Part shown: positions 6,252 through 11,430 of the stretch, piece after piece | How positions within the stretch are numbered: the first letter of the stretch is position 1 | Layout of the letters: every line of letters begins with the position of its first letter | Assembly (NCBI GenBank): GCA_945787585.1 | Contig: CALZIG010000029.1 | Coordinates: 1-11,430 of the forward strand | Direction: 5' to 3' | Origin: an uncultured Gammaproteobacteria bacterium | GTDB taxonomy: Bacteria > Pseudomonadota > Gammaproteobacteria > SZUA-140 | DNA length: 11,430 bases | The notes under the pieces: generated by a model | Databases searched by the model: none | Told to the model about the DNA's origin: nothing | Seen by the model: only the letters and a program-made list of their open reading frames with translations | Program-made: the position numbers and the translations under genes

Positions 6252-6339
6252 TCGATTCTTAGCAGTGCATCACACTTTTCATGCTCATTCAGGTCAATAC
6301 TCCGCTTTACTGACTTACTTTACGTGGAGACACACTATT

Positions 6340-6567
6340 ATGAACAAACATTATCGACTAATCGCACTCATCCCGCTCCTATGGTTAAGTGGTTGCTCCA
6401 ATGATGAGACCACTTCTTCATCAGACGAGTCTTTGATAGAGCAATCCCAGGATGATCACCTGCTCAAAGACCAGGCTAACGTACTGCAAGATGCACAGGC
6501 GCTTGAGGAAAAAATGTTAGATGGCATGGCTAATCAGCGCGATGAGGTAGAAAAACAGGGCGAGTAA
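6340..6567 (+). CDS. Small coiled-coil lipoprotein
   Basis: This 75-residue protein has a lipoprotein signal (MNKHYRLIAL then IPLLWLSGC, Cys19 lipidated). A Ser/Asp/Glu-rich linker (about 20-35) follows, then a single charged helix (about 38-73: LKDQANVLQDAQALEEKML) with heptad-like spacing of Leu, Ala and Met. The design, a lipid anchor plus a short coiled coil, resembles Lpp-like or small envelope-associated lipoproteins, but there is no C-terminal Lys for peptidoglycan linkage (it ends EKQGE). Ser20 at +2 suggests outer-membrane sorting. The start at 6340 is set by GGAGA about 9 nt upstream; an upstream in-frame ATG at 6265 would place 25 polar residues before the signal and is rejected. 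It is convergent with the MerF-like gene, whose end is only 37 nt away. Confidence 0.82.
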   Translation: MNKHYRLIALIPLLWLSGCSNDETTSSSDESLIEQSQDDHLLKDQANVLQDAQALEEKMLDGMANQRDEVEKQGE

Positions 6568-6604: not shown

Positions 6605-6859
6605 CTACTCATCATCCGCATCCTGCTTTTCCTGTATTTTTTTCTGCCACATGCCGTAACCCATTGCGCCGAAACAGATAAACAGTAGCGGTAACATCAA
6701 GGCACTCAACAAAGGCGCAAGTGAACTTAAACCAACAGTAGTAAGCACCATCGTTAATAGTGGTGTGAATAAAAATACGGTCGCGACCAGTGCCCCTTTA
6801 AGACCGAGAAAAACAATTCGATCTGCCCGGCTGACGGGTTTGTCTTCTTCAGTGGCCAT
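6605..6859 (-). CDS. MerF-like two-helix membrane protein without mercury-binding cysteine pairs
   Basis: This 84-residue protein has two membrane helices (about 15-44 and 47-71) and a charged tail. Its core matches my recollection of the mercury transporter MerF: LVA...FTP followed by 14 residues ending VGLSSL, then MLPLLFI, then a Tyr-Gly and Lys-rich helix end (MGYGMWQKK). In MerF, a Cys-Cys pair sits directly before FTP and a second pair lies in the C-terminal tail. Here the first position reads Phe-Leu (residues 29-30), the tail is QDADDE, and the only cysteine is Cys62 in helix 2. Transport of Hg(II) by the classical vicinal-thiol route is therefore unlikely. The ATG overlaps the TAA of the cysteine-rich gene by one base (TAATG), so the two are probably co-translated. 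The partner protein may supply the thiols. The homology is from recalled sequence and should be tested. Confidence 0.7.
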   Translation of the reverse strand: MATEEDKPVSRADRIVFLGLKGALVATVFLFTPLLTMVLTTVGLSSLAPLLSALMLPLLFICFGAMGYGMWQKKIQEKQDADDE

Positions 6860-7077
6860 TAGTCACAACACCTTTTATCTTGCTGAATCGGTGGGCACGG
6901 CACATCGCCATACGAACAGAACACACAGCAATCTCCCGCCTGCGGTTTCAACAACAGACCACAACCGCTGCATTGGTGGTAATACTGACAGGCATCTGTT
7001 GGCATCTCAAGGCGTTCCTGATGACCACACTCAGGGCAGGCCAATGTTGAAAAAAGAATCGGTGAAAGTTCTGTCAT
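6859..7077 (-). CDS. GDCCVxC-domain cysteine-rich protein
   Basis: The 72-residue product carries 11 cysteines. It has CPEC (14-17), the phrase MPTDACQYYHQCSGCG (Cys30, 36, 39), the family signature GDCCVFC (Cys50, 51, 54), VPCPP (Cys61) and a terminal Cys70-Cys71. This matches the family annotated as 'GDCCVxC domain-containing (seleno)protein', in which some members replace one signature Cys with selenocysteine; this copy uses Cys throughout. The two CxxC pairs suggest a zinc-ribbon-like fold, and the GDCCVxC loop a metal- or redox-active thiol site. The family's biochemical role is not known to me. No signal peptide is seen, so it should be cytoplasmic. The start is the ATG at 7077-7075, which shares a base with the dctM stop (TGATG); a TTG one codon earlier is unnecessary. 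The MerF-like gene follows with a one-base overlap. Confidence 0.88.
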   Translation of the reverse strand: MTELSPILFSTLACPECGHQERLEMPTDACQYYHQCSGCGLLLKPQAGDCCVFCSYGDVPCPPIQQDKRCCD

Positions 7078-8417
7078 CAACCAAACCCCTGCATCTCATC
7101 CATTAACTGTGGCAGCCAGGTCACCACATCTGGAAACGCGATCAACAACCCCAGTACTGATAGTTGAATCACAATAAACGGTATCACACCGCGATAGATC
7201 TGGGTAATCTTTACCGACGGCGGCGCGGCCGCCTTGAGGTAAAAGAGCGAAAAACCAAACGGGGGCGTGAGGAATGAGGTCTGTAGGTTCATCGCAATCA
7301 GAATCGCAAACCACACCGGATCGATATCCATCATAATCGCAATCGGTGCGATGATCGGCACCACCACAAAACAGATTTCAATAAAATCTAAAAAGAAGCC
7401 GAGCAGAAAGATGATCAGCATGCTGACGACGAGAAAGCCCCACTCCTCGCCCGGCAGCTCCATCATGATATCTTCGACCATCATGTCGCCACCCATGCCG
7501 CGAAACACCAGCCCAAAGGTGGTGGCGCCGATCAGGATCAAAAACACCATACTGGTCATGCGCGTGGTCTGCTGCATTGTGCCCTGCAAGTTTGGAAAAC
7601 TGAGACGCCGCCGCATCAGCGCCAGCAACATTGCGCCCAATGCGCCGACTGCCGCTGACTCGGTGGGTGAAGCGATGCCAAAAAAGATCGATCCCAGCAC
7701 CGCGACTACCAGTGCCAGTGGCGGCAACAGGCTCTTCAGCACCGCCATCCACAAGCTGCTATCACCGCGCTCGGCCTGTAGCTTCTTTACATCGATTGCA
7801 GGCGCATGCTGCGGTCTGAACCATGCAACCAATAAAATAAAAATAATAAACAGTACGACCAGCAAAAAACCTGGCACCACTGCCCCGGCAAAGAGCTGGC
7901 CCACCGGCACGCCAACCACATCAGCCAGCAGAATCAATACAATGCTAGGCGGGATGATCTGTCCCAGCGTACCGGAAGCGGCGATGGTGCCGGCAGCAAG
8001 TTCCGTACGATAACCATGCTTTAACAGTGCAGGCAGTGCAATCACCCCCATTGTCACCACAGTAGCGCCGACCACACCAGTAGTCGCGGCGAGCAGTGCG
8101 CCGACGATGACGATCGATACCGCGAGTCCGCCACGGATGCGGCCAAACAACATCCCCATTGTCTCCAACAGCTCTTCGGCAATGCCGGATTTCTCCAGCA
8201 TGATCCCCATAAAGACAAACAGCGGCACGGCCAGCAATGTGAAGTTGGTCATGATGCCCCAGATGCGCATCGGTAGCAGCTCGAAGAAATCGAGGCCGAG
8301 GAAGATGCCGCCAAACACCATCGACACTGCACCGAGGGTGAAGGCGACGGGAAAGCCAATCATCAGCGCGATGATCACCACGCCGAACATAATGAGCGCC
8401 CACACTTCCATCTCCAT
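7077..8417 (-). CDS. dctM: TRAP transporter large permease subunit (DctM family)
   Basis: This is the 446-residue large membrane subunit of a tripartite ATP-independent periplasmic transporter, which imports organic acids or related solutes using a Na+ or H+ gradient. About 12 membrane segments are evident. Family hallmarks are visible: LLAVPLFVFMGIMLEKSGIA (61-80), ATTGVVGATVVTMG (111-124), SGTLGQIIPPSIVLILLADV (148-167), FFGIASPTESAAVGALGAML (245-264), FFLDFIEICFVVVPIIAPIA (341-360) and TSFLTPPFGFSLFYLKAAAP (380-399). Length is normal and intact. The sequence style fits the DctM group annotated as mannitol/chloroaromatic TRAP (FcbT3-like), but that name does not fix the substrate. Its ATG overlaps the dctQ stop (TGATG). 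The essential periplasmic binding protein DctP is absent from the window. Downstream it is coupled to the GDCCVxC gene. Confidence 0.96.
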   Translation of the reverse strand: MEMEVWALIMFGVVIIALMIGFPVAFTLGAVSMVFGGIFLGLDFFELLPMRIWGIMTNFTLLAVPLFVFMGIMLEKSGIAEELLETMGMLFGRIRGGLAVSIVIVGALLAATTGVVGATVVTMGVIALPALLKHGYRTELAAGTIAASGTLGQIIPPSIVLILLADVVGVPVGQLFAGAVVPGFLLVVLFIIFILLVAWFRPQHAPAIDVKKLQAERGDSSLWMAVLKSLLPPLALVVAVLGSIFFGIASPTESAAVGALGAMLLALMRRRLSFPNLQGTMQQTTRMTSMVFLILIGATTFGLVFRGMGGDMMVEDIMMELPGEEWGFLVVSMLIIFLLGFFLDFIEICFVVVPIIAPIAIMMDIDPVWFAILIAMNLQTSFLTPPFGFSLFYLKAAAPPSVKITQIYRGVIPFIVIQLSVLGLLIAFPDVVTWLPQLMDEMQGFG

Positions 8418-8980
8418 CAGACGTCTTGCTCCGGTGCTGTTTTCGCGTCGTCACCGCGTGTTGCAATCTTCTGCGCACTACGAATAATCATCGCGACACC
8501 CTGGATCACTAATAAGACAAAGCAGAGCGGAATCATCATTTTAATCAGATAACGGTACGGTAGCCCGCCGGGGTCGGGCGAATGTTCGTCCAAAGTATAG
8601 GCATTTTCGACAAATGGCCACGCGCTATAAATAATGAGGATTGAGAACGGCAGCAGAAAAAAGAGTGTACCGAACAGATCAACCCATGCGCGTCGTCGCT
8701 CATTCATCCAGCGTGCGCGATAACAGAGATCGACTCGCACATGACAATCATGCTTCAACGTATACGCAGCACCGAGTAGAAAGATCAATGCGAAGAGGTG
8801 CCACTCCAGCTCTTGTAATGCAACCGAGCCTTCCTGAAACAGATAACGCATGGTGACGTCGTAACTGACCAGCAGCACCAGCGCCAGCGTCAGCCACGCG
8901 ACGATGCGACCGCTCCATTCGCTAAAGCATTCGATCACGCTGGCCACACGTGCCAGTGCATTGTTATTCTGTGATGTCAT
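8417..8980 (-). CDS. dctQ: TRAP transporter small permease subunit (DctQ family)
   Basis: This 187-residue inner-membrane protein has four predicted helices (about 25-46, 55-75, 98-122 and 144-168), as expected of DctQ, which pairs with DctM to form the transport unit. The recognisable landmarks are the amphipathic segment ELEWHLFALIFLLGAAYTLK, HVRVDLCY after it, WVDLFGTLFFLLPF, and SPDPGGLPYRYLIKMMIP ahead of the last helix. The last is typical of the DctQ group accompanying FcbT3-like DctM proteins. The start lies 8 nt after the gspN stop, with AAAGAG close before the ATG. The hydrophilic tail (ATRGDDAKTAPEQDV) ends in a stop that overlaps the dctM start. Position directly behind gspN, with no room for a promoter, suggests read-through from the secretion operon. 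Confidence 0.93.
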   Translation of the reverse strand: MTSQNNNALARVASVIECFSEWSGRIVAWLTLALVLLVSYDVTMRYLFQEGSVALQELEWHLFALIFLLGAAYTLKHDCHVRVDLCYRARWMNERRRAWVDLFGTLFFLLPFSILIIYSAWPFVENAYTLDEHSPDPGGLPYRYLIKMMIPLCFVLLVIQGVAMIIRSAQKIATRGDDAKTAPEQDV

Positions 8981-8988
8981 GAACTCTT

Positions 8989-9768
8989 TTAACCTGGCGC
9001 TGTGGTCAGTGCTTGCAACGGTAACTGTCCCTGATGTTTGATGGTGTAGACCCCTTTGGCATTGGGTGTGCCGATAAAACGCAGCCCCTGCCGCAGGTCG
9101 TTACGCTGGTTATCGCGCAACTCGATAGTCGCAGCAAAAATATAATCCCCAGCGGGCTGTATTAACAGCGTGCCATTCACCTTCAACGGGCCATCGATAT
9201 CACGCACCACGCCATTAATTTTATCGTCCGCAGTCGTCAGTACCAGTTCGAAATTTCCAAACGTGGTGTTGTTCAGTTCCAGTCCGGCATCGCGCCAATG
9301 AATCGTTCCTTCGACAACGCCCAACTGTTCCCCTTCCAGTGCAAGCTCATCGAACTCAATCTCAAACAGGCCACTTAAGCCAAACGCGAGCTGTGGCGAG
9401 AGTGTTTCAATCGCGGCGGCGGCGAGGCTACCTTTGAAATCGTGCAAATAAGGCCCGCTCAGGCCGCGCCCCAACGTGCCCGAGAAATCACGATCATCGT
9501 AACGAAAACTGACCGCGCTCTGCACACGCGCCAGTAACAATGCCGCGGGTTGTAGTTCCCATTGCAGTGATTCAAGTCGCTGTGGGCGCTGCCCCAATGT
9601 TGCGACTGCGGCACGCCCCTGCCACACCGTGCCATCAATCTGATAGAGCGCGAGCGGCAACTTCGCTTTGGCCCAGTGATACACCCTGTCCGCAGGGGTT
9701 TGGGCCGCCACAAAAAAGAGATAACTCACCAGCGCAAGCGCGCCATAAAGTACGATCTTCTTTTTCAT
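8989..9768 (-). CDS. gspN: Type II secretion system protein GspN
   Basis: This 259-residue bitopic inner-membrane protein has one N-terminal membrane anchor (about residues 5-21) followed by a periplasmic beta-rich domain. Family features are APADRVY-like sequence after the anchor (here QTPADRVYHW), LYQIDGTVWQGRA (about 41-53), the LESLQWELQP phrase, and an extended strand-rich body ending in an IKHQGQLPL segment. GspN is an accessory, non-universal part of the secretion apparatus, thought to sit beside GspC/L/M at the inner-membrane platform. The start overlaps the gspM stop by four bases (ATGA). It is the last recognisable gsp gene; dctQ follows after 8 nt. Confidence 0.9.
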   Translation of the reverse strand: MKKKIVLYGALALVSYLFFVAAQTPADRVYHWAKAKLPLALYQIDGTVWQGRAAVATLGQRPQRLESLQWELQPAALLLARVQSAVSFRYDDRDFSGTLGRGLSGPYLHDFKGSLAAAAIETLSPQLAFGLSGLFEIEFDELALEGEQLGVVEGTIHWRDAGLELNNTTFGNFELVLTTADDKINGVVRDIDGPLKVNGTLLIQPAGDYIFAATIELRDNQRNDLRQGLRFIGTPNAKGVYTIKHQGQLPLQALTTAPG

Positions 9769-10253
9769 CCGGCACCCTTCAACGTCAGGCGCACGTTAAC
9801 CATGCCACTCTCGGCGTGTTGATCAACGGTAATACTATCAATCGACACCGTATGTCGATTTTGTAACGTTTCCAGCCAGCGCATCATTTTGTCAAAGTTG
9901 GCGCGCTCAAGGCGAATCCGCACCTTGTCACTCCCTTCAGGTTCGACCCGCGTTACTGCACCGCCCAACCCACTGCGCTTGGCGGTCTGATCGGCCAGCG
10001 AGAGTAGCGACGCGCCGCCACTCACCGCACGATTCTGCGTGCCACTCCCTTTGCGTAACTGGGCTGCCTCAAGCGCCGCGGCTTCCATCCACTGACTCAC
10101 GGCACGCTGCTCGCTCACTACCTCGCGCATGCGCTCAACGTCGCTGGCGAACGACAGCCAGCTCCACACCAGTAGCGCCACTATCAGCAGTGATGCGCCG
10201 CCGATCACCACCATGCGCTCACGAGGGGCTAATGTTGCAAGCCACGCCTTCAT
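9765..10253 (-). CDS. gspM: Type II secretion system protein GspM
   Basis: This 162-residue inner-membrane platform protein binds GspL and helps place it in the secretion machine. It has a short cytoplasmic N-terminus with the usual Arg-rich start (LATLAPRERMVV), one membrane helix (about 14-33), a periplasmic coiled segment (about 36-66), and a ferredoxin-like domain: SLLSLADQTAKRSGL (82-96), VRIRLERANFDKMMRWLETL (111-130) and a closing GMVNVRLTLKG strand. Length is normal. It overlaps both neighbours by four bases (ATGA), so gspL, gspM and gspN are translationally coupled. Confidence 0.95.
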   Translation of the reverse strand: MKAWLATLAPRERMVVIGGASLLIVALLVWSWLSFASDVERMREVVSEQRAVSQWMEAAALEAAQLRKGSGTQNRAVSGGASLLSLADQTAKRSGLGGAVTRVEPEGSDKVRIRLERANFDKMMRWLETLQNRHTVSIDSITVDQHAESGMVNVRLTLKGAG

Positions 10254-11430
10254 GCGCCTTTACCTTTTAGTTGCAGGCGCGCTTCAACACGGTTGCCACG
10301 CGCAGTCGCCGAGAGGATCTCAACCTGCAAACCGGCCTCTTTTATAATGCGCTGCTTCAACTGATCCAGCCCCTGAATATCCGCAATCGCGAGCGCCATA
10401 TCAAGCTGACCGTTGCGATAACTGATGCGCTGTAGTTCCAGCCCGTTGGCACCCTTCAGCGCATCGCCTACCGATGACAACAGGGTTAACAGACCATCAT
10501 CGCTGCCACCCTCACCACCGCGTAATTTTTTGAGACACTGTTTCATCTGCGCTTCAGGGTTAACAATGCGTTTAGCGCCGGGGCAGGCGGCGAGATAAGT
10601 CTCTTCGATATGTTTTTTCAGCGCGGCCTGTTCTGCGCTCAGTTTAAAATAATCGACTACCGTCATCCCGCCAGAGATCAGCAGCAGTGCCGCCAGCATG
10701 GCCGCGGCGGCGCGCCACGGGCGTAGCAGCTTGCCGACCTGATCGCGGCGACTATATTGCCCCTGCAACAGGTTGAGCGTCTGTTTTTCATCCAGCCCTT
10801 GCGCCAGCAGTGCCAGCGCATCGACCGCCTCTTCTTCGCGACTCACCACCAGATCAAACTCACTCAACTGCTCGATCAGCGCCAGGTCATCGCCCGCGCC
10901 GGCACTGATCAGACGTAGCTGCTCAGGCGCGCCCGCCCCTTTGCCACTGGCCCGCAGCGCACTGCGCAACATCACCACCAGATTATCTACGTCGACTGCA
11001 AAGCCCTGGTTGCGACCAGTACTGACCAGTGCGGTTTCGCCTTCCAGCAGTAACGTCCACTCCGGCCGGTCGGTGACCGGCAGACAGCAGAGGTCGGCGA
11101 CAATCATATGCGGCTCGACGCCGTGCATCCGCAATAACTCAAGCCACGACTGCATCTTTTGGTGCTCGACCACCACCGTGGCCACCTGTCCGGCGGCATC
11201 CGGCTCATCGATCACAAAATGGAGCTGCTCGACATCACTCGCCAGTTGATCTTCGAGGAGATAGGGCACGGCACTGAGAATACGCTGACGATTGCGGCTC
11301 GGCACCGTGGCCGACATCAGCAATAGTTCTGTGGCAGGGACAATAACAATGACACGGCAACCACTCGCCGCGGCGGCGAGTTCACCCATCGGCATCTCAC
11401 TGGAGACCCCTTCCGCACCCGCTTCAGCGA
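10250..11430 (-). CDS. gspL: Type II secretion system protein GspL, missing its first residues at the window edge
   Basis: GspL ties the cytoplasmic ATPase GspE to the inner-membrane platform. The frame stays open to the right edge, giving 392 visible residues; the true start, probably some tens of residues upstream, is outside the window. Counting from the Met at 11395, the cytoplasmic actin-like domain runs to about residue 225. It contains ATVPSRNRQRILSAVPYLLE and DQLASDVEQLHF, which are strongly characteristic, and NLLQGQY (208-214) just before the membrane helix (about 229-250). The periplasmic part is a coiled segment followed by a ferredoxin-like domain (320-380). An internal ATG at 11395 should not be taken as the start: upstream codons are open and normal GspL proteins have more N-terminal sequence. 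Upstream gspC-K genes would be expected beyond the edge. Confidence 0.95.
   Translation of the reverse strand, partial: AEAGAEGVSSEMPMGELAAAASGCRVIVIVPATELLLMSATVPSRNRQRILSAVPYLLEDQLASDVEQLHFVIDEPDAAGQVATVVVEHQKMQSWLELLRMHGVEPHMIVADLCCLPVTDRPEWTLLLEGETALVSTGRNQGFAVDVDNLVVMLRSALRASGKGAGAPEQLRLISAGAGDDLALIEQLSEFDLVVSREEEAVDALALLAQGLDEKQTLNLLQGQYSRRDQVGKLLRPWRAAAAMLAALLLISGGMTVVDYFKLSAEQAALKKHIEETYLAACPGAKRIVNPEAQMKQCLKKLRGGEGGSDDGLLTLLSSVGDALKGANGLELQRISYRNGQLDMALAIADIQGLDQLKQRIIKEAGLQVEILSATARGNRVEARLQLKGKGA

What the first reader, a model, noticed from the sequence alone, without database searches (positions are those of the whole stretch)
6605..7077. MerF-like protein that has lost its cysteine pairs, coupled to a protein with 11 cysteines
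The 84-residue protein keeps the LVA...FTP...VGLS framework I recall from MerF. The Cys-Cys before FTP is Phe-Leu and the C-terminal Cys pair is absent. The overlapping partner has GDCCVFC, two CxxC pairs and a terminal Cys-Cys. The thiol function may have moved to the partner, or the pair may handle a different metal or a selenium/sulfur compound. This is the best candidate in the window for an undescribed two-gene system.
Basis: partly seen in the sequence, partly recalled or inferred. Interest (0 to 1): 0.7.

Follow-up and report, generated by a model that had tools for sequence, protein, structure and literature searches.

The report
Cysteine-less MerF relative behind TRAP genes
A small membrane protein descended from a mercury carrier has lost its metal-gripping cysteine pairs and now sits at the end of a TRAP transporter operon, next to a cysteine-rich protein of unknown function whose relatives elsewhere often accompany, and are sometimes fused to, mercury transporters.

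Summary
The 84-residue protein (MerFL) is a diverged MerF homologue: profile-profile E 2.9e-13, below the NCBIfam MerF cut-off. Its TM1 Cys-Cys is Phe-Leu. One transmembrane Cys (C62) is invariant in 22 of 22 family members. The partner is a full member of NF041374 (GDCCVxC), the selenoprotein family GOS_B of unknown function.

The partner's 11 cysteines are its family's norm, so no thiol function moved into it here. The pair is not obligate: in this genus MerFL follows dctM in 9 of 9 genomes that have it, while the GDCCVxC gene is there in 4 of 9. MerFL is under purifying selection without it. MerFL is better read as a MerF captured by a dctQM TRAP operon than as half of a two-gene metal system.

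Elsewhere GDCCVxC-MerF pairing is real: same order with a CCFTP MerF in L021, and a natural MerF-GDCCVxC fusion in L208. In 14 sampled MerF loci GDCCVxC (6) and a MerA motif (5) never co-occurred, suggesting GDCCVxC as an alternative cytosolic metal acceptor. No function was tested.

The parts
6605..6859 (-). MerFL: 84-aa membrane protein, predicted two-helix hairpin, MerF relative without TM1 or C-terminal Cys pairs (FLFTP; single Cys62)
6859..7077 (-). GDCCVxC-domain protein (NF041374 = GOS_B), 72 aa, 11 Cys; N-terminal part resembles zinc ribbons (weak fold matches)
7077..8417 (-). dctM, TRAP transporter large permease; its stop overlaps the start of the GDCCVxC gene (TGATG)
8417..8980 (-). 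dctQ, TRAP transporter small permease
8989..9768 (-). gspN (type II secretion protein N, PF01203), upstream in the same run of genes
   Evidence: synteny
9765..11395 (-). gspM-like and gspL-like genes (named by position next to gspN and by eye, not by a profile), same run of genes

Best explanation
MerFL and its neighbour descend from a mercury-resistance-type cassette, GDCCVxC gene followed by merF, of the kind still seen with an intact CCFTP MerF on a deltaproteobacterial contig (inferred from homology and gene order). In general, GDCCVxC proteins are probably small cytosolic Cys-rich proteins that receive a thiophilic metal, most likely Hg(II), from a MerF/MerT-type membrane carrier, as an alternative to MerA (inferred). 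In this genus the merF copy landed behind dctQM, lost both Cys pairs, and is now kept for something other than a Cys-to-Cys mercury relay. The most likely role is a small two-helix membrane accessory or regulator of the DctQM TRAP permease; in several related genera dctM lies beside a DctP of a keto-acid-binding type. The GDCCVxC gene is an optional remnant of the cassette that may still bind metal. Shown: homology, synteny, Cys loss, purifying selection, absence of the partner in 5 of 9 genomes. Inferred: cassette origin, TRAP association and the metal-acceptor role.
For: MerF homology. MerFL directly follows dctM in 9 of 9 genomes of the genus that have it; in the tenth, G006, neither MerFL nor this dctM was found. 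GDCCVxC lies between them in 4 of 9; the other 5 have a 42-46 nt spacer. MerFL dN/dS among the 5 genomes without GDCCVxC is 0.054-0.128 in 9 of 10 pairs, one not computable; in the 6 pairs with dS below 1.2 it is 0.064-0.128. Invariant residues not found in seven ordinary MerFs: K21 in TM1 and C62 in TM2, 22 of 22. No MerT match (0 of 4) and no MerA over cut-off (0 of 4) in the GDCCVxC-bearing genomes, which are 74-94% complete; all 20 genomes searched have sub-cut-off flavoprotein matches to MerA, 397 of 454 bits in the window's. The cassette in the same order, with overlapping genes, an upstream merR-like gene and CCFTP, in L021. The window's GDCCVxC is closer in a short-domain tree to L021 and Desulfuromonadales-type sequences (distance 0.8-1.1) than to the GDCCVxC copies of its own taxonomic family (2.7-3.1). 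MerF-GDCCVxC fusion L208 with both domains over cut-off; GDCCVxC joined to a MerT-like domain in L064 (26.1 bits, below cut-off) and to a heavy-metal-binding domain in L022. Near 14 MerFs GDCCVxC in 6, MerA motif in 5, both in 0, neither in 3 (Fisher p 0.031).
Against: No physical or functional link between MerFL and DctQM is shown; gene order alone supports it. The 9 genomes are one genus, so the synteny may be one evolutionary event. The keto-acid-type DctP was found in only 4 of 10 genomes of the genus (G002, G003, G004, G008), away from dctM, and not in the window's own, 86% complete, genome. The MerFL structure model is weak (pLDDT 72.5, pTM 0.37) and has no significant PDB match; MerF structures are not among its 9 listed matches. 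C62 and, in 6 of 22, one TM1 Cys could still bind a metal. In 43 of 80 GDCCVxC loci no CCxxP MerT/MerF-type neighbour was seen, some of them cut by contig ends.
Confidence: 0.45

Rival explanations
1. MerFL and GDCCVxC still form a metal or metalloid module: MerFL passes a soft metal through a path using C62 (and one TM1 Cys in some relatives) to the GDCCVxC protein.
For: GDCCVxC keeps the full family Cys set in the window; the genes overlap and are probably translationally coupled; fusions elsewhere suggest that the two domains work together; C62 invariant.
Against: GDCCVxC is absent in 5 of 9 MerFL genomes, yet MerFL stays conserved. The TM1 Cys pair that is critical for transport in MerE, and required in MerT (abstract and start of the introduction of PMC5715351), is gone. 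No merR, merP or merA was recognised among the window's genes.
Confidence: 0.25
2. MerFL is a passenger with an independent membrane function, held behind dctM only because that place gives steady expression.
For: Operon ends can pick up unrelated genes (general knowledge); the gene is confined to one genus among the genomes searched (9 of 10; 0 of 10 other genomes of the order have it, one of them having an ordinary MerF).
Against: The placement is kept in 9 of 9 genomes although the DNA downstream differs (the window's lipoprotein gene was matched only in G001 and G005).
Confidence: 0.25
3. Chance hydrophobic resemblance: MerFL is not a MerF relative.
For: Below the curated MerF cut-off (36.6 of 50 bits) and below Pfam's.
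Against: Family-to-family E 2.9e-13 with FTP, G43 and P57 aligned. A MerFL profile run over 10,019 ORFs hit, besides the family itself, 9 ORFs, all MerF or MerT-P type by eye, 6 of them at E below 0.002; these ORFs come from GDCCVxC loci, which are rich in mer genes.
Confidence: 0.05

Closest known systems
MerF (NF033565, PF11431), two-helix mercury transporter of mer operons
   Same: Length, predicted two-helix hairpin, FTP motif, G43 and P57, alignment over 66 columns
   Different: No TM1 Cys-Cys, no C-terminal Cys pair, invariant K21 and C62, score below cut-off, no mer genes around, follows dctM
GDCCVxC domain (seleno)protein, NF041374 = hypothetical protein GOS_B
   Same: 101.8 bits against a cut-off of 40; all family Cys present
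   Different: Placed between dctM and a Cys-less MerF relative instead of beside an intact MerT/MerF
TRAP transporter (DctPQM), keto-acid-binding type by its relatives
   Same: dctM and dctQ over cut-offs; the DctP beside dctM in one related genus (G012) matches PDB 'ketoacid-binding protein' 7ug8 at 4.6e-94
   Different: An extra small membrane gene follows dctM; no dctP was found beside dctM in this genus

Membership tests
MerF | NCBIfam trans_MerF curated cut-off (50 bits) | tested here: not met
   36.6 bits; G005 35.3 and G003 37.0 bits
MerF | Cys-Cys in TM1 before FTP | tested here: not met
   FL in 16 of 22, CL in 6 of 22; 13 of 14 MerFs over cut-off have CC
MerF | FTP framework and two-helix hairpin | tested here: met
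   FTP and alignment; hairpin only as a model of modest confidence
MerF | Located in a mer operon | tested here: not met
   window genes; no MerT match and no MerA over cut-off in this 86% complete genome
MerF | Transports Hg(II) | not testable with these tools
   needs an uptake assay
GDCCVxC / GOS_B | NCBIfam NF041374 cut-off (40 bits) and GDCCVxC motif | tested here: met
   101.8 bits, GDCCVFC in the sequence
GDCCVxC / GOS_B | Conserved cysteines of the family | tested here: met
   9 Cys shared with 199 of 199 aligned members (three of them part of the selection pattern), C70 with 182 and C71 with 173 of 199
GDCCVxC / GOS_B | Selenocysteine form (not required for membership) | tested here: not met
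   Cys codons only in the window copy
TRAP transporter | DctM and DctQ subunits | tested here: met
   PF06808 301.9 bits, TIGR00786 349.3 bits, PF04290 75.2 bits, all over cut-off
TRAP transporter | DctP solute-binding protein for this permease | tested here: inconclusive
   DctP-family genes exist elsewhere in the genome (C192, C200); the keto-acid type seen beside dctM in other genera was not found in this genome

The most novel reading that the evidence does not exclude
MerFL is an additional small membrane subunit of a TRAP transporter, made by capturing a mercury carrier and replacing its Cys pair by an invariant transmembrane lysine nearby: a soft-metal carrier turned into a helper of a carboxylate transporter.
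Probability: 0.2. Interest if true: 0.7.

Novelty: new variant of a known kind. Interest (0 to 1): 0.5.

Why it matters
It gives a case of a metal-transporter relative that lost its metal ligands while staying under selection in a new operon. The comparison also gives the GOS_B / GDCCVxC family, catalogued since 2008 without a function, a concrete hypothesis: cytosolic partner of MerF/MerT-type carriers, with natural fusions that can be tested in a laboratory strain.

Tried and rejected
Thiol transfer to the partner: rejected, because the partner's Cys columns are the family norm. Obligate pair: rejected. Loss of the C-terminal pair as a sign of partnership with GDCCVxC: not supported, because tails without Cys-Cys occur in MerFs with GDCCVxC, with MerA and with neither, and one MerF with GDCCVxC (L205) has the pair. 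A Cys-less MerT/MerF as a general neighbour of GDCCVxC: none seen. In one search the MerT/MerF-type neighbours carry CCxxP; of the rows without the motif I printed 8: one is a membrane ORF with CC in another spacing (L046), the rest look MerP-like or otherwise different by eye. That check partly rests on the motif used to recognise them. L086 has a MerC-like neighbour by eye.

Structure: the GDCCVxC model is good (pLDDT 86.8) but no PDB match reaches E 0.001; among the best are zinc ribbons (eS27, LysW). The MerFL model is weak and matches nothing. A complex could not be predicted with the tool at hand.

Gain or loss of GDCCVxC in the genus: in the tree the five genomes without it form one clade (support 0.94) if the root is where the outgroup joins (0.84); this fits presence in the ancestor and one loss, but weakly. 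The first seed used was by mistake the UvrD-like ORF beside DctP; the comparison of the keto-acid-type DctP was made properly. The profile drifted to include MerP, so I give the CCxxP count beside it; the 37 loci were picked by hand from its rows. In one search four of the 41 'near' loci are not among the 37. In one search the G004 MerFL row runs past its stop by a few codons, with at most one codon entering a pair. Literature: 'GDCCVxC' in 0 papers; 'TRAP transporter' with 'MerF' in 0. PMC3466566 and PMC9312934 were seen as passages and nothing rests on them.

Full report
What is in the window. The window is G000:C29:1-11430, in a genome of 2.36 Mb in 321 contigs, 86% complete. On the minus strand it reads gspL, gspM, gspN, dctQ, dctM, the GDCCVxC gene, then the 84-residue protein that I call MerFL (gspL and gspM named by position and by eye). 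The last three overlap by one base each: TGATG between dctM and GDCCVxC, TAATG between GDCCVxC and MerFL. The finding's coordinates are right.

MerFL is a MerF relative. It misses NCBIfam's curated MerF cut-off (36.6 of 50 bits, E 3e-9) and Pfam's, but it finds MerF among solved structures (2m67, E 5.5e-5), and its family profile aligns with seven ordinary MerFs over 66 columns at E 2.9e-13. Searches of 5.8 billion proteins returned 15 relatives with the single sequence and 23 with the profile (only 7979 candidates scored). Of the 23, 21 are full-length members of one tight family, one is a fragment and one an ordinary MerF. With the window that makes 22 members. FL replaces the Cys pair in 16 of 22 and CL in 6 of 22; K21 and C62 are present in 22 of 22 and in none of the seven ordinary MerFs aligned. 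The predicted fold is a helical hairpin of modest confidence.

The partner is ordinary. It scores 101.8 bits against NF041374 (cut-off 40). [quoted passage not shown] In an alignment with 199 relatives (one of 200, P0024, was dropped because it reads GHCC) nine of the window's Cys occur in 199 of 199, and C70 and C71 in 182 and 173. Three of the nine belong to the pattern by which I selected the rows. So the Cys richness is the family's, not a compensation for MerFL. In the genus itself the G008 copy has changed to GDCCLFC and lost the last Cys pair.

The constant partner of MerFL is dctM, not GDCCVxC. In ten genomes of the genus, MerFL occurs in 9 and follows dctM in 9 of 9 (window included). 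GDCCVxC occurs in 4 of 10, each time between the two. In the other 5 MerFL genomes the spacer is 42-46 nt with a ribosome-binding-like AGGAG or GGGAG. In G006 neither MerFL nor this dctM was found. MerFL dN/dS is 0.044-0.189 in the 23 of 36 pairs that could be computed, many with saturated dS. Among the five genomes without GDCCVxC it is 0.054-0.128 in 9 of 10 pairs, and 0.064-0.128 in the six of these with dS below 1.2. GDCCVxC gave 0.031-0.199 in 5 of 6 pairs.

Related genera. Of ten other genomes of the order 8 have this dctM and none has MerFL; the one match to the MerFL profile there (G015) is an ordinary CCFTP MerF in a merR-T-P-F-A operon. In 4 of those 8 (G011, G012, G014, G018) a DctP gene lies within about 1.3 kb of dctM, and the one tested (G012) matches PDB chains named keto-acid-binding and lactate-binding, and one named SmoM. 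Orthologues of that DctP (68-73% identical over the whole set) occur in 4 of 10 genomes of the window's genus (G002, G003, G004, G008), on other contigs than dctM, and not in the window's own genome. No MerT match occurs in 9 of 10 genomes of the genus and no MerA over cut-off in 9 of 10; G003 has both. Sub-cut-off MerA matches occur in all 20 genomes and also in the 14 control genomes, so they say little.

Where GDCCVxC sits elsewhere. Within 2.5 kb, 34 of 80 have a MerT, MerF or MerP match and 40 of 80 have one of these or a MerR-family match. An iterated profile found 40 of 80 within 1.5 kb against 1 of 80 beyond 2.5 kb, and a bare hydrophobic-CCxxP motif gave 41 against 3. Reading the rows, 37 of 80 have a CCxxP MerT/MerF-type neighbour. 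Neighbours of some other loci look, by eye, like arsenite (ACR3) or RND metal efflux genes, and many show no metal gene that I recognised. Four annotated plasmid regions, chosen from 60 listed rows of 349 records, all have a merT-family gene upstream of GDCCVxC, three with merP or a heavy-metal-associated-domain gene between.

GDCCVxC and MerF as a pair. In L021, a deltaproteobacterial contig, a merR-like gene is followed by GDCCVxC and then, overlapping, an intact CCFTP MerF of 65 bits. In L208 the two are one protein, both domains over cut-off (98.7 and 80.3 bits). L064 joins a MerT-like domain (26.1 bits, cut-off 150), and L022 a heavy-metal-binding domain, to GDCCVxC. Of 369 genomes of the class, 22 have a MerF match and 14 a match over cut-off. 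In those 14 loci, which reach at most about 1.5 kb to each side, GDCCVxC is present in 6, a MerA active-site motif in 5, both in 0 and neither in 3 (Fisher p 0.031). Two of the 6 share a genus, and so do another two, so the rows are not independent.

Reading. The simplest account is descent of the pair from such a cassette, insertion behind dctQM in the ancestor of this genus, loss of the Cys pairs in MerF, and later loss of GDCCVxC in one branch (tree, root weakly supported). In a tree of the short domain the window's GDCCVxC is nearer to L021 and Desulfuromonadales-type sequences than to the copies in its own family, which fits transfer. The TM1 Cys pair is critical for Hg transport in MerE and required in MerT (PMC5715351, abstract and start of the introduction), so a MerFL without it is unlikely to relay Hg in that way. 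That MerFL now serves the TRAP permease is inference from gene order and selection only.

Novelty. MerFL is a new variant of a known kind. No paper naming GDCCVxC was found, nor one naming a TRAP transporter together with MerF, in the library searched.

Noticed in passing
L208:915-1409 (+): Natural MerF-GDCCVxC fusion protein in a gammaproteobacterium, both domains over NCBIfam cut-offs.
   Followed up: yes
L064:4761-5195; L022:4575-5213; L033:1223-1753: GDCCVxC domain joined to a MerT-like membrane domain (Portibacter, below MerT cut-off) or to a heavy-metal-binding domain (an acidobacterial MAG by profile, a gammaproteobacterial MAG by eye).
   Followed up: partly
L201-L214: GDCCVxC and MerA appear mutually exclusive next to MerF in a small sample (6, 5, 0 both, 3 neither).
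   Followed up: partly
L024, L047, L067; L017, L054, L057, L059: GDCCVxC genes beside genes that look by eye like arsenite (ACR3/ArsC) or RND metal efflux genes, so the family's metal may not be mercury alone.
   Followed up: no
NZ_CP022563.1, NZ_CP088926.1, NZ_CP095734.1 (L188-L190): merR-merT-merP-type-GDCCVxC operons on plasmids, with no annotated merA within the stretch shown (one stretch ends at the record end; the plasmid gene table is incomplete).
   Followed up: partly
L136:340-2523 (G002) and G000:C192: A 728-residue frame that joins a DctP domain to what looks by eye like a second, ABC-type binding-protein domain; in the window's genome the relative appears in more than one frame.
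   Followed up: no
window 7077-11395: Type II secretion genes gspLMN run directly into dctQM; a similar linkage occurs in another genus of the family (G012).
   Followed up: partly
window 6265-6567 (+): Small lipoprotein-like gene convergent with MerFL, matched only in G001 and G005 among the relatives compared.
   Followed up: partly
L113:4084-4290 (G008): GDCCVxC copy of the same operon that has drifted: GDCCLFC and no final Cys-Cys, with a higher dN/dS against the other copies (0.145 and 0.199 in the two of three pairs computable).
   Followed up: no
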